A stretch of 64,000 nucleotides of DNA, taken from the NCBI RefSeq assembly GCF_026283965.1, contig NZ_JAPDPD010000009.1, forward strand, positions 124,001-188,000, given 5' to 3'. The notes below the pieces were generated by a model. That model saw only the letters and a program-made list of their open reading frames with translations. It was not told the origin of the DNA and searched no databases. The DNA is from Dyella subtropica (GTDB lineage Bacteria > Pseudomonadota > Gammaproteobacteria > Xanthomonadales > Rhodanobacteraceae). Positions 44,942 through 58,039 of the stretch are shown here, piece by piece; the first letter of the stretch is position 1; each line of letters begins with the position of its first letter. A program made the position numbers and the translations under genes.

Positions 44942-45469
44942 ATCGCTACCACCGACAACAAGGGCAATCGCCGTAACCTCGAAATCCGCGTTCCACGCGT
45001 TCGCGTGATCGGCGCTGATGCGGAACAGCTCGGCATCCTTACCCGCGACGAGGCGCTGGCACTGGCGCAAGAGGCGGGCATGGACCTGGTCGAGATCCAG
45101 CCGAACGGCGACCCGCCGGTCTGCCGCATCATGGATTACGGCAAGTTCAAGTTCGAGGCCCAGAAGAAGGCCCAGGCGGCCAAGAAGAAGCAGAAGCAGG
45201 TCGAGATCAAGGAAGTGAAGTTCCGTCCGGTGACGGACGTGGGCGACTACCAGATCAAGCTGCGCAACATGCTCCGCTTCCTGGAAGAGGGCGACAAGGT
45301 CAAAGTCACCATCCGCTTCCGCGGTCGAGAGATGTCCCACCAGGACCTGGGCCAGAACCTGGCCAAGAAGATCCAGGAGGACGTCGGCGAGAACGGTCAG
45401 GTCGAGTCGTTCCCGCGCCTGGAAGGCCGCCAGATGGTCATGATGATCGGGCCGAAGAAGAAGCAGTAG
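44942..45469 (+). CDS. infC: Translation initiation factor IF-3 (ATC start)
   Basis: 175 residues. The start is a non-canonical ATC at 44942-44944, preceded by GGAGGA with a 7-nt spacer, giving (M)[30 protein letters not shown]. The next common start (GTG at 45005) would delete the conserved N-terminus. Rare AUU/AUC starts are a family hallmark: IF-3 rejects them, so the protein limits its own synthesis. The N-domain (about 1-75), a Lys-rich linker ([14 protein letters not shown]) and a C-domain with [12 protein letters not shown] are complete. It begins 45 nt after thrS. Confidence 0.96.
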
Positions 45470-45475
45470 GCCCTC

Positions 45476-45505
45476 AAAACGGCGGCCTAGGGCCGCCGTT
45501 TTGCT
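45476..45505 (+). terminator. Terminator after infC
   Basis: A perfect 12-bp stem (45476-45487 and 45491-45502), a 3-nt loop, and a short T-run (TTTTGCTTT). It separates thrS-infC from rpmI-rplT. Confidence 0.85.
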
Positions 45506-45600
45506 TTATGGGGGTAGCCCTTGCACCGCCTTTTGGCGCTGTCATCCGCTCCGCTCCGGGAGCGCGGCATTTAGAGCTGGTATTGCCCCCCATCCCTCCG

Positions 45601-45606
45601 TATAAT
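45601..45606 (+). promoter_or_regulatory. -10 box of the rpmI-rplT promoter
   Basis: A perfect TATAAT lies 122 nt before rpmI, downstream of the infC terminator. No good -35 box is seen at 17 nt, so the call rests on the -10 match and position. Confidence 0.55.
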
Positions 45607-45609
45607 CAC

Positions 45610-45641
45610 CGGTTCGACCCGCCAGGAAGGGTCGTGAACCG
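45610..45641 (+). promoter_or_regulatory. Hairpin in the rpmI-rplT leader
   Basis: CGGTTC-GACCC (45610-45620) pairs with GGGTC-GT-GAACCG (45629-45641), giving an 11-bp stem with a 2-nt bulge just after the -10 box. The remaining leader has further complementary segments (for example GGGGTCTCAACCCC near 45698). r-protein L20 represses this operon through leader RNA in other bacteria, and this leader is a candidate site. Confidence 0.5.
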
Positions 45642-45728
45642 ATCGTGGCAGGACGGAAAGCGTGGCTTCGGGCTACCGCCAGATCAGTCAGAAACCGGGG
45701 TCTCAACCCCCATCAAGGAGCATTACCC

Positions 45729-45926
45729 ATGCCCAAGATCAAGACCAACCGGGCGGCGGCGAAGCGTTTTCGCAAGACCGCGTCCGGTAAGTTCAAGGCC
45801 GGTCACGCCTTCAAGTCGCACATCCTGACCAAGAAGTCGACCAAGCGTAAGCGCGGTCTCCGTGCCACCAACCACGTCAAAGCTTGCGACACCAAGGGTG
45901 TAGCACGCATGTTGCCGTACTTGTAA
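45729..45926 (+). CDS. rpmI: 50S ribosomal protein L35
   Basis: 65 residues, very basic. The [14 protein letters not shown] start and KRKRGLR block are typical of L35. AAGGAG lies about 9 nt before the ATG. Followed by rplT after 16 nt. Confidence 0.97.
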
Positions 45927-45942
45927 GGCGAGGAGATAAACC

Positions 45943-46302
45943 ATGGCTCGTGTAAAGCGTGGCGTTACCGCCCGTCGTCGTCACAAGAAAATCATCGGCC
46001 GCGCGAAGGGTTACTACAACGCCCGTCGCAAGGTCTTCCGCGTTGCCAACCAGGCCGTCATCAAGGCCGGTCAGTACGCCTATATCGGCCGTAAGCAGAA
46101 GAAGCGCCAGTTCCGCGCTCTGTGGATCGTGCGTATCAACGCTGCTGCCCGTCAGTTCGGCTTGTCCTACAGCCGCCTGATCAATGGCCTGGCGAAGGCA
46201 GGCATCACGGTCGACCGCAAGGTGCTGGCCGACATCGCCGTGCACGACATCAAGGCGTTTGGGGCCATCGCAGAAAAGGCGAAGGCCAGCCTAGCCGCTT
46301 GA
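45943..46302 (+). CDS. rplT: 50S ribosomal protein L20
   Basis: 119 residues, basic. [17 protein letters not shown] at the N-terminus and the [24 protein letters not shown]-domain are typical. L20 is an early assembly protein and usually the translational repressor of rpmI-rplT. Ribosome site GAGGAG precedes it. Confidence 0.97.
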
Positions 46303-46324
46303 TCGTCAACCACTGACGATATGA

Positions 46325-47398
<1,074 letters not shown>

Positions 47399-47508
47399 GA
47401 GCCAGGGACGGGGACTGAGAAGTAGGGGCGTGGCCCCATCGTTGCGCAAGATTCGGTTTTCGCGCCCTCGCTACTCATCCCTCACCCCTCGAACAAAGTG
47501 AGCCAAGC

Positions 47509-49887
47509 ATGAAATTCTCCGAGAACTGGCTGCGCGAGTTGGTCGAGATCAAGGCCGACCGTGCCGCACTGGCCCATGCGCTGACCATGGCGGGGCTGGA
47601 AGTAGAAGAACTCACGCCGCTGGGCGAAGGCCTGGCCGGTGTGGTGGTGGTCGAAATCGTCGGCGCCGAAAAGCACCCGGAAGCTGATCGCCTGCAGGTG
47701 TGCAAGGTGAGCATGGGGCAGGGTGAGCCGCTGCAGATCGTCTGCGGCGCGCCGAATGCGCGCGTGGGCATCAAGGTGCCGCTGGCGACGGTGGGCGCCA
47801 ACCTGCCGGGCGGCATCGCTATCAAGGCAGCCAAGCTTCGCGGCGTGGAATCGTTCGGCATGCTGTGTTCGGCCAAGGAGCTGGGTATCGACGCCGATGC
47901 GTCCGGTCTGTTGGAGCTTCCGCTGGACGCCCCGGTGGGCAAACCGCTAGCCGACTACCTCGGTCTGCCCGATGCGAGCATCGAACTGAAGCTCACCCCG
48001 AATCGCCCGGACTGCCTCGGCCTCGTCGGCCTTGCGCATGACGTCGCGGCCTTGTTCGGCAGCGCGGTGAAGGTGCCTGCACAAGCCAGCACGCCGGTGA
48101 GCAGCGAAGCCGGTCGTGGCATTCGGCTCGAAGCCGGCGCCGATGCGCCGCGCTACCTCGGTCGCGTCGTCGAAGGCATCGATCCGCAGGCGCGTACGCC
48201 ATTGTGGTTGGCCGAGCGCCTGCGCCGTTCCGGTCTGCGCCCGATCAGTGCCGTCGTCGATGTCACCAACTACGTCATGCTCGAGCTGGGTCAGCCGTTG
48301 CACGCGTTCGACAATGACACGCTCGAAGGCGACGTCGTGGTGCGTCACGCGCGCCATGGGGAAACCGTGAAGCTGCTCGACGGATCGGAAGCCAAGCTCG
48401 ATAGCGGCTTCGTGCTGATCGCGGACGAACGCAAGGCGTTGGCCGTCGCCGGCGTGATGGGCGGTTACAACTCGCGTGTCACCGACACCACGCACAACAT
48501 TTTCCTGGAATCGGCGCACTTCGCCCCGGCGGCGATCATGGGACGCGCGCGCAAGCTGGGCATGCATACGGATGCTTCGCACCGCTTCGAGCGTGGCGTC
48601 GATCCCGAGCTGCCGCGCCGTGCGCTCGAGCGCGCCACCGAGCTGCTGCTCTCCATCGCCGGCGGCAAGGCGGGTCCGGTGTTGATTGCTGAAAATCTTG
48701 CCGACTTGCCGACGCCGGCAACAGTGACGTTGCGTCGCGTGCGCCTCAAGCGCGTGCTGGGCGTGGATGTGGCCGATGCCGAAGTCGTGCGTATCTTCAC
48801 CGCGCTGGGCATGCACATTGAAACCGTCGCCGATGGCTGGCGCGTCACGGCGCCCAGCAGCCGTTTCGATATCGAGCGCGAAGAGGATCTGGTCGAAGAG
48901 GTCGCACGCATCTTTGGCTACGACAATATCCCCACTCACACCCCCGCTGGCGCGTTGACCTTGGTTGTCGAGCCGGAGGCGCGCATCAATGAACTTGCCT
49001 TGCGCGAACAGTTGGCGGCGCGCGGCTATTACGAAGCGGTGAACCTCTCCTTCCTGTCGGCCGACCTGCTGGCCCGCTGGGGCTTCACCGAGTACCTGGT
49101 GCCGCTGGCCAACCCGTTGTCGGCCGACCTGGCGGTGATGCGCCCAGCGCTGCTGCCGGGCCTGATAGAGGCTCTTCGCCACAACCGCGCCCGTCAGCAG
49201 GAGCGTGTGCGCCTGTTCGAAGTGGCGCGGGTGTTTGCTGCGGGCGACCCGCCGCTGGAAACCCCGAGCCTGGCTATCGTCGCCTGCGGCTCGGCGCACG
49301 CCGAGCAGTGGGGCGAAGCCGTCCGTCCGCTGGATTTCCACGACCTCAAGGGCGACCTGGATGCTCTGATCGCTTGGGGCGGCGAGCCGCAGCGCTGGTC
49401 GGTGCACGCCGACGGCCTGCCGGGCTGGCTGCATCCGGGGCGCGGTGCTCGTGTTGCGCGCGATGGTGAAACCGTGGGTTACCTCGGTGCCCTACACCCT
49501 CTGCTGGCCAAGACATTGGACCTGGGGCCGGACGTCCACGTGCTGGAGTTGGCTCTGGAGCCCCTGCTGGCCCGCCGCCTACCCAAGGCCCAACCGGTAC
49601 CCCGGTTCCCCTCGGTACGTCGCGATATCGCTGTCGACCTGCCAGAAGAGGTGCAATGGGCACAGGTCGAGCAGTGCGTCCGCGGCGCCCTGGGCTCGCA
49701 GCTCAAGGCGCTGGATCTGTTCGATCGTTACAGCGGAAAAGGGGTCGAGATTGGCCGAAAGAGTCTCGCTATGGGCTTGATTTTGCAGGACGCTTCACGC
49801 ACGCTTACCGATGACGACGCGGATCGCTGCGTACGTGAAGCAGTAGGCGCGTTGGAGACAGCATGCAAGGCAAGATTGCGAGGATGA
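47509..49887 (+). CDS. pheT: Phenylalanyl-tRNA synthetase beta subunit
   Basis: 792 residues, normal length. In order: an EMAP/OB tRNA-binding domain (about 40-150), B3/B4 editing domain (about 210-380), B5 domains (about 400-480), a catalytic-like core, and a C-terminal ferredoxin-fold anticodon-binding domain (about 695-790, [17 protein letters not shown]). It pairs with PheS as an alpha2-beta2 enzyme. The 110-bp pheS-pheT gap contains GAGAAGTAGGGGCG and CTACTCATCCCTCACCCCTC stretches like other short repeats in this genome. Confidence 0.97.
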
Positions 49888-49888
49888 C

Positions 49889-50188
49889 ATGGCGCTGACC
49901 AAGGCGGAGATGGCCGAGCGCCTCTTTCTCGAGGTGGGTCTCAACAAGCGTGAGGCAAAGGAATTCGTGGACGCCTATTTCGAGGTGGTCCGCGAAGCAT
50001 TGGAAAAGGGCGAGCAGGTGAAGCTGTCGGGTTTCGGCAATTTCGACCTGCGTCAGAAGAACCAGCGCCCGGGACGCAACCCGAAAACCGGCGAAGAGAT
50101 CCCGATCTCGGCCCGCCGCGTGGTCACGTTCCGCCCGGGGCAGAAACTCAAGGTGAGAGTCGAGAGCTATGCTGGACCAAGGGAATAA
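49889..50188 (+). CDS. ihfA: Integration host factor alpha
   Basis: 99 residues. An HU-family DNA-bending subunit. The [26 protein letters not shown] arm with the intercalating Pro and the [13 protein letters not shown] block are typical of IhfA. It follows pheT by 1 nt and overlaps the next gene by 20 nt, as in E. coli-like pheT-ihfA order. Confidence 0.97.
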
Positions 50189-50525
50189 CACCGAACTCCC
50201 GGCCATTCCGGCCAAGCGTTACTTCACCATCGGTGAGGTAAGCGATTTGTGTGGTGTGAAGCCACACGTGTTGCGCTACTGGGAGCAGGAATTTCCCGCG
50301 CTCAATCCAGTCAAGCGTCGCGGTAACCGCCGTTACTACCAGCGCCACGATGTTCTGATGATTCGTCAGATCCGTGGCCTGCTGTACGACGAAGGCTTCA
50401 CTATCACCGGCGCACGTGCGCGTCTTGAAGGCCCGCAGGCGCGTATGGAAGCCAGCATCTCCCACCAGATCGTGCGCCAGGTGCGCATGGAGTTGGAGGA
50501 AGTGCTGAGCTTGTTGCGTCGCTGA
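50169..50525 (+). CDS. MerR-family regulator downstream of ihfA
   Basis: 118 residues. A MerR winged helix (about 16-85, [47 protein letters not shown]) and a C-terminal dimer helix. No metal- or drug-binding domain follows, and there are no conserved Cys. This short form regularly follows ihfA in gammaproteobacteria and its targets are unknown. It overlaps ihfA by 20 nt. Confidence 0.9.
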
Positions 50526-50591
50526 AACGCGCTCCAAATAACTTTCATCAAGGTCTGGCGAACTGCTAGACTTGCAAGCTTGCCGTATCGT

Positions 50592-50668
50592 CGGGGCGTA
50601 GCGCAGCCTGGTAGCGCATTTGCCTGGGGGGCAAAGGGTCGTGGGTTCGAATCCCGCCGCCCCGACCA
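50592..50668 (+). tRNA. tRNA-Pro (GGG)
   Basis: 77 nt with encoded CCA. The acceptor arms CGGGGCG and CGCCCCG pair perfectly. The anticodon stem-loop TTTGC-CTGGGGG-GCAAA gives anticodon GGG. It lies 64 nt from the 3' end of the lanM gene, with a shared hairpin between. Confidence 0.97.
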
Positions 50669-50685
50669 ATTCGGTGAAATAGACA

Positions 50686-50708
50686 AACGGCGCCTCGGCG
50701 CCGTTTTT
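50686..50708. terminator. Terminator between tRNA-Pro and lanM
   Basis: Complementary 9-nt arms (50686-50694 and 50697-50705) with TTTTT on the right and AAA on the left, so it can end both the tRNA and the convergent lanM transcript. Confidence 0.85.
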
Positions 50709-50732
50709 CGTTTAGCCCGAGAGATCGGCGAA

Positions 50733-53615
50733 TCAGGCCGCCATGGCGCCCAACGTCAGCACCGAGGGCAGACGACTGTCCGGATGCATCCGCAGCAGCT
50801 GATAGGCGACGCCGCCTACGCCCGGCAGCAGGCCTGGCACGAACACCTCCCGCGTCACGCCGCAGTTGGGGTTGTAATCCTCGAGGCTCGTCAGCATCTG
50901 CGCCAGCAGTCCGTCGCGCGTCATGCCTTCCGGCGCTTCGTCGTGAGCGATGGCGCGATCCAGAAGTTCCCAGGCACCCATGTCGCCATGGCATAGGCAG
51001 TGATTCCAACCCAGGCCCATCCGCGTGGTGGCTTTGGCCGCACGCTGTAGCAGCACGCGCGTCTGCGGATTTTCCAGATGCGGGTCGATATCGAGGTGCG
51101 CCAGGCCGATGCCGACCGCGCCATGGCACCATACGGCGGTGGTCTTGGGGCCGCCGAGTTTGCGCAAATCCAGCCAGTTCTGTTCCTCGGCATCGAACAG
51201 CGAATCTTCGAAGTCGAAAGCCGCGCGGGCGGTGCGTTCGAACTGCGCGTCGCCGGTGGCGCGCGCCAGCTTGAGCAGGGCCCAGCCGATACCCGTTACA
51301 CCGTGTGAGTAGCCGCCGAGACCTTCCGGCCATCGCTGTGGATGTACCCAGTACGCGCGGTCATCCGTATAGCGCGCGTCGTTGCACAGCTGCTGCCCCA
51401 GCTCCCTGGCCATGTCGAGAAAGCGTTGCTGCCCGGTATGCTCGGCTAGCGCCAGCAGCGCGGAAATTGCGCCGGCCTTTCCGGTAAGCACGTCATTCAT
51501 TTCGTCGGCTGCGGCTGCCTCGAAGATGCCTTCAGCCAGCGCGCAGGCTCGCTGCACTTCACCATGGCGGTCGCCGTTCCAGTGAGACAAGGTCAACAAC
51601 GTCCATATCTGCGAACCGAGACCGATATAGGCGCCGGGTGTCGGTGGACGTGCCTTGACGTTGTCTTGCTTGATTTGCGCCAGCCGCTCTTCCGCCACGC
51701 GCAAGGTGTGCTGTAGGTCGTCGGACAAGGTTTCGATACCTTCCACCATGTCGGCGCGGCCTGCATGCATCTCGCGCACGTAGGCGGCGGTGAGCAGCGC
51801 CACGCCCGACAGGCCCGCATACAGATCCGTGGACAAGGGCTGCACCGACCAGCCGGTGGGATTGAGCACGGGCGCGACCCAGGCCACGCTGCGGTCCTGG
51901 CCGCGGATCGCATGGCTCAGCAGACCCTGCATGATGCGAGCCGCCATGGCGCGGCGTCGCCTATCCAGCTCGCCATGGCGGATGGATGCCGGCGCGAGTC
52001 CCGCCAAGTGCGATGCCCAGCCGTCATTGAGATAGGCGCTGACCATCGTGGCTCGGATCACATTGCGTTGGAATTCGAAATCCGAGGCATGCCAATGCCG
52101 CAATGCCGCCGCCGCGAGATCGTTGGATGGTAGCCAGCGATCACCGCGCGAACCTTCCAGCTGGCCGTCGCGGACCAGCGTGTGGAAGAAGGGGATATCG
52201 CCGACCAGCAGGTCTTCGACTTCGTTACGGATGACGACCGGGTCGCTCGGCGCGGTAGCCACATTGGCCGCCATCTTGGCCAGCAGATCTTCGGCGCGCT
52301 GCCGCGCTTGCGGTTCATCGTGCAAGGACACGGGATGCCAAAGCATGCGGGCGATTTCCGCATACGCCTCGGTAGACCTCACCACCACGCGCACACGGCA
52401 GTCCGCAAATACGTCGAGGCGCGGCGCCAGTTCGCCGGAGGCATCGAGTCGCCGCAGCGTAGCGGTCAATTGATCGAACGCTTCCAGTGCTTGCGGCCAA
52501 TGCATGGCCAACGCGGGTTGCTTGCTGGGATGGTTCTGCGCCGTGGGTGCGGGAACCATGGCCGAGCCCAGATGCGCCTCGTCGGTTCCCGCCTTGATGA
52601 TGGTGGGTATGGACATCATCGGCTGCTGATCCGGGAGCGACCCGACCCCGGAATGATCGATGCCGCGCCAGCCAAGTGCCTGTGCCCGTCCGGGCAGCAG
52701 GCCAATGCTGAGCACCGCACCCGCGATCAGTTGCGCTGCTCGGTCCAGGGCTTGGCCAAAACCCGAGGGCGGCATGGCGATCCTGGGTGTGAACAAGGTT
52801 TCGCAATCCACCACCACCGGCCTGTCGCCGTTCGCGATCAGGTTTTCCGCATGAAGATCGCTGGCGCCGAGCAGGTGCATGATGGCCAGCCAGTGCCCGA
52901 TGCCGCGATAGAAACTACGCAGTTCGTCCTCGTCCGCCGCGTAGCGGTGTTCCATGAATTCGGTCCAGCCATACTCTTGCCGATCCATGGCGCGAGGCAC
53001 GCCGATGTGCAGGGGATGGTCATGATCGGCTGCCAGCTTGTCGATGAAATCATGCAAGCTGATGTCGACAGCCACCGAGCGCGGCTTGTAGACGATACGG
53101 CCGCCTTGGCAGCGCATCAACGCAACGGTGAAGCCGCCGCGGTGACTGTCGCCCGCGCCAAAGCTCAAGGCTTCCAATTCGCCGGGCGGCGCGCCACACA
53201 GCATCTCCAGGCTGGCGCGATCCGCGGCCCAGCGTTGAGCGAACAACAGCGAAGTGCGGCAGCGGTTGCGTATCACGCATTCGACACGCTGCAACAACGT
53301 TGGATAGTGTTCCTTGAGTCCGTCCCAAAAGGCAGGTTGGGACGACTGCTGTAGAAAATCAGCCCATCTCGCAGCGGGGTCTTCGCCATTGAGGCGCTTG
53401 TAGACGCGCGCCGCATTGAGTTCCACCAGCAATGTGCGCGTGAGCTTGGCATGAAGAATGCCGAGCAGCGAGTCGCGCGTTTGCTCCGTGATGAGTTCGC
53501 GTTCGCCGGGATGAAGATTGGGAACGACGAGAAGCTGGGCTGTCAGCTCGGCCATGAAAGGCGCGAGCAGACAGCCCAGCGGCGGTGCGAAACTATCGGA
53601 GATAGCGTCGGACAC
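50733..53615 (-). CDS. lanM: Class II lanthipeptide synthetase LanM
   Basis: 960 residues from the chosen start. LanM enzymes phosphorylate and dehydrate Ser/Thr in a precursor, then join Cys to form (methyl)lanthionine rings. The N-terminal DUF4135 dehydratase (about 65-435) shows RIVYKPRSV (Lys ~177), [12 protein letters not shown] (Asp ~253, His ~255, Asn ~258) and VVVDCETLF (Asp ~270). The C-terminal LanC-like cyclase has [14 protein letters not shown], the zinc ligands in WCHGAVGIG (Cys ~830) and CLCHGDMG (Cys ~875, His ~876). The start is the GTG at 53613-53615, 10 nt after the lanA stop; in-frame sequence further upstream overlaps lanA and begins with TTG. No LanT, protease or immunity gene adjoins it. 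Confidence 0.92.
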
Positions 53616-53625
53616 CTTGCGTGCT

Positions 53626-53829
53626 TTAACAGCAGTAGGCGATAGCGGAGCCCGTGCAGATAGAGCCGCAATAGCCCGAACCACAAAATAGATCTTCGGA
53701 AAAAATCTGCGTAGCGCCGGTGATATCGGCTTCTGCGAATTGACCGCTGACAAAAAGCGGACCGGCCGGGTTATCCGAATTAGCGCTGCTGCGCCACTGG
53801 TCGGCTACTTCTTGAGTTGCATCGAGCAT
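53626..53829 (-). CDS. lanA: Class II lanthipeptide precursor LanA (mersacidin-like leader)
   Basis: 67 residues. AGGAGG 5 nt before the ATG fixes the start. The acidic leader contains NPAGPLFVSGQFAEADITGA, close to the NPAG...GA leader of mersacidin-type precursors, so cleavage after Gly-Ala (residue 39) is expected. The remaining 28 residues start TQIFSEDLF and end CGSGYCGSICTGSAIAYCC: five Cys (49, 54, 58, 66, 67) and Ser/Thr at 40, 44, 51, 56, 59 and 61 available for ring formation. In mersacidin a second protease trims extra residues after Gly-Ala; TQIFSEDLF could be such a segment or part of the product. Directly followed by lanM on the same strand. Confidence 0.88.
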   Translation of the reverse strand: MLDATQEVADQWRSSANSDNPAGPLFVSGQFAEADITGATQIFSEDLFCGSGYCGSICTGSAIAYCC

Positions 53830-53911
53830 GACTTCCTCCTCACATGGTATGTGCAAGACGACAAGTACGATTGCCCCTGTGCGAGCTACCTGAGCTGGTA
53901 GTCGCCTTGAC

Positions 53912-53941
53912 CGTATAAACCATCGATAAGGGTTGCGTCAA
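53912..53941 (-). promoter_or_regulatory. lanAM promoter
   Basis: On the minus strand, TTGACG (53936-53941) and TATACG (53912-53917) are separated by 18 nt. This gives a 5' leader of about 75 nt before lanA. The surrounding 53830-54178 region is AT-rich relative to its neighbours and holds no gene I can support. Confidence 0.55.
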
Positions 53942-54178
53942 CGACGCAGCGGTCGCCGTGAGTTACGCATGTGGCGATAAGGTGATCTGCTTTGCAACTC
54001 GGTCAATGGCTTATCGGGCGGCTTTATTGCGGTATGCGTCAATGCTGCCGTAAATGCAGCAGCGTCACTACCGCATATACCCATGACGTATTGATGATGC
54101 GCTAATCGTATCGCCCGTTTTGGCCGGCTATGCGCGAATGATTGCGAACAAGTTGTCGATGACCGGTTCGAACGTCTA

Positions 54179-55186
54179 TCAAGGCACTTGCAGCACAATC
54201 TTCCCGACATGTTCGCCGGTCTCCATCAGGCGATGGGCGTCCGCCGCCTGCGCGAGTGGGAAGACCCGGTAAATCATGGGCAGGCATCGTCCGGCCTCGA
54301 GCACCGGCCATACGCGGGCCAGCAGGTCATTCGCGATCTCCGCCTTCTCGGCGGTGCTGCGTGCCCGCATGGTCGAGCCGGTTACGATGGCGCGCTTCAG
54401 CGCAAGCATCTGCAGGTCGATCTGTTCCGCAATCGTTCCACCTAGAAAGCCGATCACCACTAGGCGGCCATCGCGTGCCAGTGCCGCCAGATTCCGCTCG
54501 AAGTAGGCGCCGCCCATGATGTCGAGGATCACATCGACGCCGTGGCCATCCGTCTTGTTGAGTACGGCGAGGGCGAAGTGTTCCTCCCGATAGTTGATCG
54601 CCTCCGCACCCAGTTCGCGGATTGCCGCGCATTTACGCTCGTTGCCGGCCGTGGCGAAGGCGTTGATGCCGAATTCGCGGCACAGCATCAGCGCTGTGGT
54701 GCCAATGCCGCTGGTGCCGCCGTGGACCAGCACGTGTTGTCCCTTGGCCGCCTTGCCGATGCGAAACAGGTTCGCCCAGACGGTGAAAAAGGTTTCCGGT
54801 ATCGCGGCCGCCTGCACAGCATTCAGCCCGTGTGGCCGTGGCAGGGTTTGTCCGGCGGGAAGCACACAATATTCGGCATAGCCGCCGCCGTTGGTGAGGC
54901 CGCACACTTTGTCACCCAGTGAGAAACCTGTGGCGCCTTTGCCGATGGCGACGATCTCGCCGGCCACTTCCAGTCCGGGTGTTGGATGCGCGCCGGGCGG
55001 CATGGGGTAGTTGCCCAGCCGCTGGATGACATCAGGCCGGTTGACGCCGGCGGCCTCGACCCGCACCAGCAGCTCACCTTGTCCGGGCGAGGGAACTGGT
55101 ACGGTACGTGGTTGCAGAACGTCGGGACCACCGGGCGTGGTGATCTCGATCTCGGTCATCAGCTCCGGCAGTGCGGTTCGGGTCAT
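54179..55186 (-). CDS. NAD(P)H quinone oxidoreductase, PIG3/zeta-crystallin type
   Basis: 335 residues, medium-chain zinc-independent dehydrogenase. GroES-like N-domain (VRVEAAGVNRPDVIQRLGNYPMPPGA) and a Rossmann domain with VLVHGGTSGIGTTALML. The RPDVIQRxGxYP pattern is typical of the TP53I3-like quinone reductases. It reduces quinones by one electron with NADPH. It lies upstream of lanA on the same strand, separated by 349 bp containing a promoter; a link to lanthipeptide maturation is not supported. Confidence 0.9.
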   Translation of the reverse strand: MTRTALPELMTEIEITTPGGPDVLQPRTVPVPSPGQGELLVRVEAAGVNRPDVIQRLGNYPMPPGAHPTPGLEVAGEIVAIGKGATGFSLGDKVCGLTNGGGYAEYCVLPAGQTLPRPHGLNAVQAAAIPETFFTVWANLFRIGKAAKGQHVLVHGGTSGIGTTALMLCREFGINAFATAGNERKCAAIRELGAEAINYREEHFALAVLNKTDGHGVDVILDIMGGAYFERNLAALARDGRLVVIGFLGGTIAEQIDLQMLALKRAIVTGSTMRARSTAEKAEIANDLLARVWPVLEAGRCLPMIYRVFPLAQAADAHRLMETGEHVGKIVLQVP

Positions 55187-55317
55187 GACACGGGCGTTGC
55201 AGTGGCCAACGACTTCGTTGGACGGGCCGCTACGTTACCCCTTGCAGCAGTGAAGGATGCGTGTGTGCGGACGGCGGCTTCGTCCAAACGAAGCGCGCCA
55301 CGGAAGCTTGCGACCGA

Positions 55318-56550
55318 TCAATACAACACACGGCTCCGCAGTGTGCCGGGAATGGCGGCCAGCTTGTCCTTGAGGATCGCCGCCTGCGCCTGGTCGGCGG
55401 AAACGTCGATCACCACGTAGCCGACCTGTGAATCGGTCTGAAGAAACTGGGCATCAATGTTGATGTTGCCGGCCGAGAACAGTTCGTTGATGCGCGAAAG
55501 CACGCCGGGCACGTTACGGTGGATGTGCAGCAGACGCCGGCTGTTCGGATGCTCGGGCAGGGTCACTTCGGGGAAGTTGACGGCCGACAAGGTGGAGCCG
55601 TTGTCGCTGTAGCGCACCAGCTTGCTCGCCACCTCGATGCCGATGTTGTCCTGCGCCTCCAGCGTGCTGCCGCCGATGTGCGGGGTGAGGATGACGTTGT
55701 CCATGCCGATCAGCGGCGAAACGAAGGCATCGTCGTTGCCCTTGGGCTCCACCGGGAACACGTCCACCGCGGCGCCCGCGAGATGCCCGCTGCGCAGCGA
55801 TGCGGCCAATGCGTCGATATCCACCACGGTGCCGCGCGACGCGTTGATGAGCAGGGAGCCTGCGCGCATCTTGGCCAACTCGGTAGCTCCGATCATCAAC
55901 TTGGTGGCCGGCGTCTCGGGCACATGCAGCGTCACCACGTCGGCGCGCTCCAGCAGGTCGTTCAGGCTGCTCGCGGCCCGTGCATTACCCAGCGACAGCT
56001 TGGTTTCGACGTCGTGGAAAATCACCCGCATGCCGAGTGCTTCGGCCAGCACGCCGATCTGCGTACCGATATGGCCGTAGCCGACGATGCCCAGCACCTT
56101 GTCGCGCGTTTCAAAACTGCCCGCTGCCGACTTGGTCCAGCCGCCACGATGGCACAGCGCATTTTTCTGCGGGATACCGCGCAGAAGCATGATCGCCTCG
56201 GCGATCACCAACTCGGCGACGCTGCGCGTATTGGAGTAGGGCGCATTGAATACGGGGACGCCGAGCACTCGCGCCGCTTCCAGGTCGACCTGGTTGGTGC
56301 CGATGCAGAAGCAACCGACCGCGATCAGGCGGCGGGCATGGTTCAGCACGTCGGCGGTGAGGTGGCTGCGCGAGCGGATGCCCACGATGTGCGCCTCGGC
56401 GATGCGTGCTTTCAGCTCGGCCTCCGGCAGCGACTTCTCATGGAACTCGATCTGGCTGTAGCCGGCGTGGCGGAAACTCTCCACGGCGCTCTGGCTGACG
56501 CCTTCCAACAGCAGGACCTTGATGTCTTCTTTCGGGAACGAGGTTTTCAT
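55318..56550 (-). CDS. serA: D-3-phosphoglycerate dehydrogenase
   Basis: 410 residues, the E. coli-type length. It oxidises 3-phosphoglycerate in serine synthesis and can reduce 2-oxoglutarate to D-2-hydroxyglutarate. The substrate domain is followed by the NAD loop GIVGYGHIGTQIGVLAEALGM (about 155), the catalytic Arg in NASRGTVVDIDALA, the Glu in FPVEPKG and the His in LTPHIGGSTLEAQ. A C-terminal ACT domain (about 340-410) gives serine feedback. The start is the Met of MKTSFPKEDIKVLLLEG; no good ribosome site is seen. Divergent from the FAD oxidase gene. Confidence 0.96.
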   Translation of the reverse strand: MKTSFPKEDIKVLLLEGVSQSAVESFRHAGYSQIEFHEKSLPEAELKARIAEAHIVGIRSRSHLTADVLNHARRLIAVGCFCIGTNQVDLEAARVLGVPVFNAPYSNTRSVAELVIAEAIMLLRGIPQKNALCHRGGWTKSAAGSFETRDKVLGIVGYGHIGTQIGVLAEALGMRVIFHDVETKLSLGNARAASSLNDLLERADVVTLHVPETPATKLMIGATELAKMRAGSLLINASRGTVVDIDALAASLRSGHLAGAAVDVFPVEPKGNDDAFVSPLIGMDNVILTPHIGGSTLEAQDNIGIEVASKLVRYSDNGSTLSAVNFPEVTLPEHPNSRRLLHIHRNVPGVLSRINELFSAGNINIDAQFLQTDSQVGYVVIDVSADQAQAAILKDKLAAIPGTLRSRVLY

Positions 56551-56668
56551 GGAGAAGTTTTCATGGAGGGGCGGGGCCGATGATCGCAAAGCGGCACTAT
56601 GCGGCACCGCAGCACTGGACCGCAACGGCTTCGGCTGGCAGGCTTCGTGGATATCCCACGGAGCCATC

Positions 56669-58039
56669 ATGACCGCCTCCCTTCTGGCCGACCTCGCTGC
56701 GCGCCTGCCAGCCTTGCGCCTGCTCACCGAGCCCTCCGACCTGGAGCATTACGGGCGCGACTGGACCCGCCGCTGGACGCCGGCCCCACTGGGTATCGCG
56801 CTGCCAGCTAGCGTCGAAGAAGTGCAGGGCATCGTGCGCTGGGCCAATGAGAAGGGCGTGGCCCTGGTGCCCTCCGGCGGCCGCACCGGGTTGTCCGGCG
56901 GCGCTGTGGCGGCCAACGGGGAACTGGTGCTGAGCCTGGAGCGCATGAACCGCGTGCTCGGTTTCGATGCCGTCGACCGCACGCTCACGGTGCAGGCAGG
57001 CATCAGCCTGCAGGCCGTCCACGACGCAGCGCGCACGCATGACTTGATCTATCCGGTGGATTTCGCGGCGCGCGGCTCTTGCTCCATCGGCGGCAATATC
57101 GCTACCAATGCCGGCGGTATACGGGTCATCCGCTATGGCAATACGCGCGAGTGGATCGCCGGCCTGACCGTGGTGGCGGGTAATGGCGAGTTGCTCGAAC
57201 TCAATCGCGGCTTGATCAAGAACTCCAGCGGTTACGACCTTCGCCAACTCATGATCGGCTCGGAAGGCACCCTGGGCATGGTGGTGGAGGCGACGCTGAA
57301 GCTGACCGATCCGCCGCCGCCTTCGCAGGTGATGCTGCTGGCGTTGCCGGACATGGCGGCGCTGATGCAAGTGTTTGCGCTATTTCGCGCAACGCTTCAA
57401 TTGCAGGCTTTCGAGTTCTTCACCGACGTAGCGCTGCGGCACGTGCTGGCGCATGGCGCGCAGCGAGCCATCGATGGCGACTATCCGTACTACGTGGTCA
57501 CCGAGTTCGATGCCAATGAAGAGGCAGCGCTGGCCGCGTTCGAACATGGCGCGGAGCATGGCTGGATCAGCGATGGTGTGATCGCCCAGAGCGAGGCCCA
57601 GGCCGCCGCTTTGTGGCGCTTGCGTGAAGGCATCACCGAAAGTCTGGCGCCGCATCGCCCCTACAAGAACGACATCTCGCTGCGCATCAGCGTACTGCCG
57701 GCGTTCCTGCAGGAAATCCAGGCGCTGCTGGCGCAGGAATATCCGCAGGCCGAGGTGGTGTGGTTCGGCCATATCGGCGACGGCAACCTGCATATCAACG
57801 TGCTCAAGCCCGAAGGGCTCAGCGATGCGGACTTTATCGCCCAGTGCGAGCACGTGACCAAGCTGCTGGCCGCGACGCTGCAGCGCCATGGCGGCAGCAT
57901 CTCGGCGGAACATGGGATCGGGCTGGTGAAGAAGCCTTACCTCGGCAGTACGCGGAGCGAAGCGGAGATTGCGCTGATGCGTGGGGTGAAGGGAGTGTTC
58001 GATCCGAAGGGGTTGATGAATCCGGGGAAGGTGTTTTAG
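56669..58039 (+). CDS. FAD-linked oxidase, D-2-hydroxyglutarate dehydrogenase/GlcD type
   Basis: 456 residues. A PCMH-type FAD domain (about 35-215: PSGGRTGLSGGAVA, GGNIATNAGGIRVIRYGNTREWI) and an FAD-oxidase C-domain ending in the HGGSISAEHGIGLVKKPYL and GVFDPKGLMNPGKVF blocks, with the WFGHIGDGNLHIN metal/substrate region. The start is the ATG at 56669 with GGAG 5 nt upstream. Divergent pairing with serA fits D-2-hydroxyglutarate dehydrogenase, which recycles the SerA by-product. D-lactate or glycolate oxidation remains possible. Confidence 0.85.
   Translation: MTASLLADLAARLPALRLLTEPSDLEHYGRDWTRRWTPAPLGIALPASVEEVQGIVRWANEKGVALVPSGGRTGLSGGAVAANGELVLSLERMNRVLGFDAVDRTLTVQAGISLQAVHDAARTHDLIYPVDFAARGSCSIGGNIATNAGGIRVIRYGNTREWIAGLTVVAGNGELLELNRGLIKNSSGYDLRQLMIGSEGTLGMVVEATLKLTDPPPPSQVMLLALPDMAALMQVFALFRATLQLQAFEFFTDVALRHVLAHGAQRAIDGDYPYYVVTEFDANEEAALAAFEHGAEHGWISDGVIAQSEAQAAALWRLREGITESLAPHRPYKNDISLRISVLPAFLQEIQALLAQEYPQAEVVWFGHIGDGNLHINVLKPEGLSDADFIAQCEHVTKLLAATLQRHGGSISAEHGIGLVKKPYLGSTRSEAEIALMRGVKGVFDPKGLMNPGKVF

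What the first reader, a model, noticed from the sequence alone, without database searches (positions are those of the whole stretch)
50733..53945. Compact class II lanthipeptide locus (lanA-lanM) beside tRNA-Pro
A Cys-rich 67-residue precursor with a strong ribosome site is followed 10 nt later by a complete LanM with intact dehydratase and zinc-cyclase motifs. Class II lanthipeptides are far better known in Firmicutes, Actinobacteria and Cyanobacteria than in this group. The core (five Cys, ending CGSGYCGSICTGSAIAYCC) is not one I recognise, so the product may be a new ring topology.
Basis: partly seen in the sequence, partly recalled or inferred. Interest (0 to 1): 0.88.

Follow-up and report, generated by a model that had tools for sequence, protein, structure and literature searches.

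The report
Two-gene DUF6229 class II lanthipeptide locus
This bacterium carries a compact two-gene kit for a ring-bearing (lanthionine) peptide of an already described family, in a five-cysteine version whose ring pattern has not been worked out; it is a sound but mostly ordinary find.

Summary
On the minus strand lie a 67-residue, five-Cys precursor (53829-53626, AGGAGG ribosome site) and, 10 nt later, an intact 960-residue LanM (53615-50733) with DUF4135 and LANC_like domains; tRNA-Pro follows.

The kind is known. The precursor is Pfam DUF6229 (E 1.9e-16), reported in PMC9576775 as class II lanthipeptide precursors (rhodanocins) and in PMC11451712 as common in Lysobacter (passages read). DUF6229 rings in 43 of 398 genomes of this order; 64 of 65 fetched DUF6229 loci, window not counted, have a LanM beside it.

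The core differs from the published rhodanocin pattern. It belongs to a five-Cys subtype seen in 5 of 16 held genomes of another genus; the six LanMs form one clade (SH-aLRT 100), and five Cys and six Ser/Thr positions are kept. In 5 of 5 congeners the tRNA-Pro site lacks the cassette and shows a zf-UBP gene; the window's genome has no zf-UBP. I found no LanT, protease or immunity gene beside it. Ring pattern, export and activity remain open.

The parts
53835..53840 (-). AGGAGG ribosome site of lanA
   Evidence: read from the sequence, 5 nt before the ATG
53626..53829 (-). lanA: 67-aa DUF6229 precursor; residues 1-36 leader-like (conserved PAGPL..SG.FAE.DI), about 40-67 core with five Cys (49, 54, 58, 66, 67) and Ser/Thr at 40, 44, 51, 56, 59, 61
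   Evidence: translation; PF19740, 60.1 bits, cut-off 25; alignment of six; leader/core boundary is inference
50733..53615 (-). lanM: 960-aa class II lanthipeptide synthetase, GTG start, dehydratase (DUF4135, residues 104-479) and cyclase (LANC_like, 593-953)
   Evidence: alignment to CylM and LicM2
50592..50668 (+). tRNA-Pro (ggg), neighbour; not part of the lanthipeptide locus
50709..54181 (.). stretch absent at this site in five congeners, holding lanA-lanM; approximate limits
   Evidence: BLASTN of window 49000-57000 against five congener loci L119-L123

Best explanation
A two-gene class II lanthipeptide locus of the DUF6229 (rhodanocin-related) family. LanM binds the conserved leader of LanA, phosphorylates and eliminates Ser/Thr in the C-terminal core, and its zinc cyclase adds the Cys thiols to form up to five (methyl)lanthionine rings. 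The leader is then removed and the peptide exported by proteins encoded elsewhere, and the product most likely acts on competing bacteria. Shown: genes, domains, catalytic motifs, conservation of the pair. Inferred from the published relative: dehydration and cyclisation. Guessed: export, activity, ring pattern. The core is a five-Cys subtype, not the rhodanocin core itself.
For: Domains and family models. CylM alignment keeps the motifs G-D-S-H, VYKP, SDLHAEN, VDCE, R-V-V-V-R-S-T and the cyclase WCHG / CLCHG (roles of these residues recalled). Precursor hits DUF6229 over its whole length; the family is lanthipeptide by experiment for one member (PMC9576775). LanM beside 64 of 65 fetched DUF6229 loci. 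Five Cys and six Ser/Thr positions kept in six of six subtype members, in two genera. The six LanMs are one clade, and the core label changes once on the LanM tree. Where it could be computed dN/dS is low: lanA 0.08-0.27 (6 of 15 pairs), lanM 0.09-0.17 (12 of 15 pairs).
Against: No transporter, protease or immunity gene recognised beside the pair (not every neighbour was annotated). The genome's two C39 hits do not look like a LanT: one ABC exporter has no Cys in its C39 part and sits beside HlyD, the other is a stand-alone domain. No sigma-70-like site was found upstream of lanA. No expression or mass data. dS above 1 in many pairs, so dN/dS is rough; 12 of 30 pairs gave no value.
Confidence: 0.9

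Rival explanations
1. It is a true rhodanocin, with the published ring layout (Thr6-Cys11, Cys8-Ser14, Thr12-Cys23, one Dhb).
For: Same leader family and the same large LanM clade (24 rows); both cores hold C..C[ST]GS, and in both the last ring could close on the C-terminal Cys.
Against: The spacing TxCxxCTxSxxxTxxxxC derived from the paper is absent from the window core; it matched 4 of 73 precursors, all in one other genus. The window core has five Cys, not three, and its LanM lies outside the four-row clade with that core.
Confidence: 0.08
2. Intact but silent or decaying locus: the pair was acquired and no longer makes a product.
For: No dedicated export or immunity genes recognised; no promoter-like site found. 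Decay does occur in the family: one fetched relative has a DUF6229 fragment without LanM (L115) and another a LanM split into two frames (L116).
Against: Both window frames are whole, the ribosome site is strong, the core Cys/Ser/Thr are all kept, and dN/dS is low where computed.
Confidence: 0.12
3. The modified peptide is not an antibiotic but a signal or other own-use molecule.
For: No immunity gene recognised beside it; the published relative had only weak activity (126 uM against K. pneumoniae, probably not the native end, PMC9576775).
Against: No direct evidence either way; core types differ among congeners, as expected of antagonistic peptides.
Confidence: 0.25

Closest known systems
Rhodanocin (LanII product of Dyella sp. 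333MFSha; DUF6229, PMC9576775)
   Same: DUF6229 precursor, class II LanM, compact locus, related LanM clade; C..C[ST]GS motif in the core
   Different: published core has three rings and spacing TxCxxCTxSxxxTxxxxC; window core has five Cys and does not match
DUF6229 class II precursors of Lysobacter, six core families (PMC11451712)
   Same: same precursor family with varied cores (passages)
   Different: their sequences are in a figure and supplement I could not read, so whether one of the six equals the window's subtype is unknown
   Same: same core layout, LanM directly downstream, LanM 67-70% identical
   Different: other genomic neighbourhoods
LicM2 (6st5) and CylM (5dzt)
   Same: same enzyme class; LicM2 247 bits over residues 55-956, CylM 116 bits
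   Different: from two-component lantibiotic/cytolysin systems of other phyla (recalled), with dedicated transport genes

Membership tests
Class II lanthipeptide locus (LanA-LanM) | bifunctional LanM with DUF4135 dehydratase and LanC-like cyclase | tested here: met
Class II lanthipeptide locus (LanA-LanM) | leader-core precursor with Cys and Ser/Thr in the core, beside lanM | tested here: met
Class II lanthipeptide locus (LanA-LanM) | (methyl)lanthionine in the product | not testable with these tools
   needs expression and mass spectrometry
Class II lanthipeptide locus (LanA-LanM) | LanT-type peptidase-transporter (common, not obligatory) | tested here: not met
   no LanT-like ABC frame of 250 aa or more in window 45001-58000; the genome's ABC-C39 protein has no Cys in that domain
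DUF6229 (PF19740) precursors | profile match over the curated cut-off | tested here: met
   60.1 bits, cut-off 25, residues 3-67
Rhodanocin proper | core spacing TxCxxCTxSxxxTxxxxC from the NMR ring assignment | tested here: not met
   absent from the window core; in 4 of 73 precursors
Double-glycine (C39-cleaved) leader | GG/GA/GS before the core, cleaved by a C39 protease | tested here: inconclusive
   window has G38-A39, but residues 38-39 are SK, SQ or SS in the five relatives; the published relative was not cut by LahT150

The most novel reading that the evidence does not exclude
The five-Cys core is a distinct lanthipeptide topology: the C-terminal part keeps a rhodanocin-like reversed ring (Cys54 adding to a dehydroalanine at Ser61, on its C-terminal side) crossed by rings to Thr59 and the terminal Cys-Cys pair, with extra N-terminal rings (Ser44 to Cys49 and one on Ser51), five rings in 24 residues, matured and exported without a dedicated LanT.
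Probability: 0.25. Interest if true: 0.5.

Novelty: new member of a known kind. Interest (0 to 1): 0.3.

Why it matters
It adds a conserved five-Cys core subtype, in two genera, to a family with one ring structure known to me in print. The LanM tree and the cores change together, so the family is a good set for asking how LanM enzymes and ring patterns change together. The two-gene layout without LanT or protease also poses a plain question: who cuts the leader and exports the peptide in these bacteria. It does not change the view that class II lanthipeptides are common in this order.

Tried and rejected
Rarity of class II loci in this group: rejected. True rhodanocin core: rejected on spacing. 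tRNA-linked integrative element: tRNA-Pro is whole, the cassette starts after a terminator-like hairpin, no repeat of the tRNA 3' end was listed at the far side (min length 14), and I recognised no integrase among the frames listed for the flanks (frames not all annotated); so I do not claim an integrating element. The terminator-like hairpin (50685-50706) is one of 2 sites found against a shuffle mean of 2.8, so no evidence by itself. Anti-phage defence: no PADLOC match. Scan of genome contigs with LanM: 12 candidate stretches, 1 distant relative at 27% identity (L002), not useful. dN/dS failed for 12 of 30 pairs. The LanM tree is a 'quick' tree with SH-aLRT only; L116 (LanM split in two frames) was left out and L115 has none, so 64 rows include the window. 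No fold was run, as sequence similarity was enough. In print: searches; supplements could not be read, and I did not search the core's letters in print.

Full report
What is there. On the minus strand, lanA runs from ATG 53829 to 53626 (67 aa) with AGGAGG 5 nt upstream. lanM starts at GTG 53615, 10 nt after the lanA stop, and runs to 50733 (960 aa). LanM matches DUF4135 and LANC_like nearly end to end and the type 2 LanM model at 610.6 bits. Aligned to CylM it keeps the dehydratase motifs and the cyclase cysteines and histidine; the roles of those residues are recalled, not tested. It is the only DUF4135 match in this genome.

What the precursor is. It matches Pfam DUF6229 (PF19740) at 60.1 bits, cut-off 25. 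I read passages and two whole sections (9 and 15) of PMC9576775: a DUF6229 peptide of Dyella sp. 333MFSha, co-expressed with its LanM in E. coli, received four dehydrations and three rings, was solved by NMR, and was named rhodanocin, with orthologs in several genera of Rhodanobacteraceae. Passages of PMC11451712 say 21 of 27 unique class II precursors in Lysobacter are DUF6229, and that the precursors form six families. Passages of PMC11165876 list class II lanthipeptide clusters for Luteibacter mycovicinus strains including 333MFSha. So the kind of locus is known.

How common it is. DUF6229 matches 24 of 147 relatives, 43 of 398 genomes of the order, own genome included, and over the cut-off 2 of 369 genomes of the class, both of this order, plus one weak match below the cut-off in another family. 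I fetched 65 stretches around the matches. They hold 72 precursors, 73 with the window. A LanM frame lies on the same strand in 64 of 65; 63 pass the adjacency rule used, and the other (L078) fails only because its open frame starts further upstream. The exceptions are L115, a fragment without LanM, and L116, whose LanM is in two frames.

The core. From the published ring assignment I derived the spacing TxCxxCTxSxxxTxxxxC. It occurs in 4 of 73 precursors, in one genus (g11), and not in the window. The window core instead fits C-x(0,1)-S-G-x-C-G-[ST]-x-C-[ST]-G-S-x4-C-C, found in 6 of 73: the window and five genomes of genus g18. In that genus 6 of 16 held genomes match the window precursor, five with this core and one (G381) with another. 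Across the six, Cys 49, 54, 58, 66, 67 and Ser 51, 61 are invariant, and 40, 44, 56 and 59 are always Ser or Thr (positions read by eye). A four-Cys relative (CGTxC[ST]xS...CC, 10 of 73) looks like this core without its N-terminal part. These patterns were drawn from the same sequences they sort.

LanM and core change together. In a quick tree of 64 LanMs the six five-Cys LanMs form a clade with SH-aLRT 100; the window's nearest row is L099 at 70% identity. The five-Cys label needs one change on the tree, and four core labels need three, the fewest possible (rows with other cores not counted in the second figure). dN/dS, where it could be computed, was 0.08-0.27 for lanA (6 of 15 pairs) and 0.09-0.17 for lanM (12 of 15); the rest failed, and dS is often above 1.

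The site. Window 49001-50708 and 54186-57000 align with G001, and similarly with the other four congeners, with no aligned piece between about 50709 and 54181. All five keep tRNA-Pro there, and in all five a small zf-UBP-like frame is visible beside it (family checked on one typed copy). The window's genome has no zf-UBP match. Three of the five also carry a membrane-protein-like frame there, and G004 has a longer insert. So lanA-lanM stands where congeners keep zf-UBP. Gain with replacement, or loss in the others, cannot be told apart. Four of the five congeners carry DUF6229 loci elsewhere with other cores (G001 two; G002, G003 and G005 one each), G004 none.

Export and processing. A LanT-like or other ABC frame was sought with two query proteins: 20 of 65 stretches have one, many as weak matches (31-66 bits), including 5 of 10 four-Cys loci and 13 loci of the CSxC[ST]AS type; 0 of 5 five-Cys relatives and none in window 45001-58000. 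Two of the five relatives (L099, L101) end about 0.5 kb after lanM, so their far side is unseen. The genome has two C39 matches: an ABC-C39 protein beside an HlyD-type protein with no Cys in the C39 part (sequence), and a stand-alone domain. Neither looks like a LanT. The published relative was not cut by LahT150, in line with the poorly kept G-A here.

Most likely mechanism. LanM modifies the core of LanA; a general protease and exporter finish the job; the product acts on neighbours. The first step rests on the solved relative, the rest is inference. Possible rings, unproven: Ser44-Cys49, Ser51 or Ser56 with Cys54 or Cys58, Thr59 and Ser61 with Cys66 and Cys67; or, by analogy with rhodanocin, a reversed ring from Cys54 to residue 61.

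Verdict. A real, intact locus and a new member of a known kind, with an uncharacterised core subtype. The claim of rarity in this group does not hold; the claim of a new ring topology is open.

Noticed in passing
window 50709-54181 versus L119-L123: The tRNA-Pro to quinone-oxidoreductase gap is a variable site in the genus: zf-UBP in five congeners, two copies of it around a longer insert in G004, an extra membrane-protein-like frame in three, and lanA-lanM here.
   Followed up: partly
L116 8013-10969: A DUF6229 relative whose LanM lies in two overlapping open pieces in different frames, so probably broken or a sequencing error.
   Followed up: no
L054, L097, L106, L108, L109, L110, L113: Seven of 65 fetched loci carry two DUF6229 precursors in tandem before one LanM, four of the genera concerned with differing cores.
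   Followed up: no
L078, L086, L087, L088, L112: Half of the ten four-Cys DUF6229 loci have an ABC transporter frame right after lanM, a candidate exporter for the family.
   Followed up: partly
L117 5736-9364: Own-genome ABC exporter with a C39-like domain lacking Cys, beside an HlyD protein; probably a type I secretion system (recalled pattern), not a LanT.
   Followed up: partly
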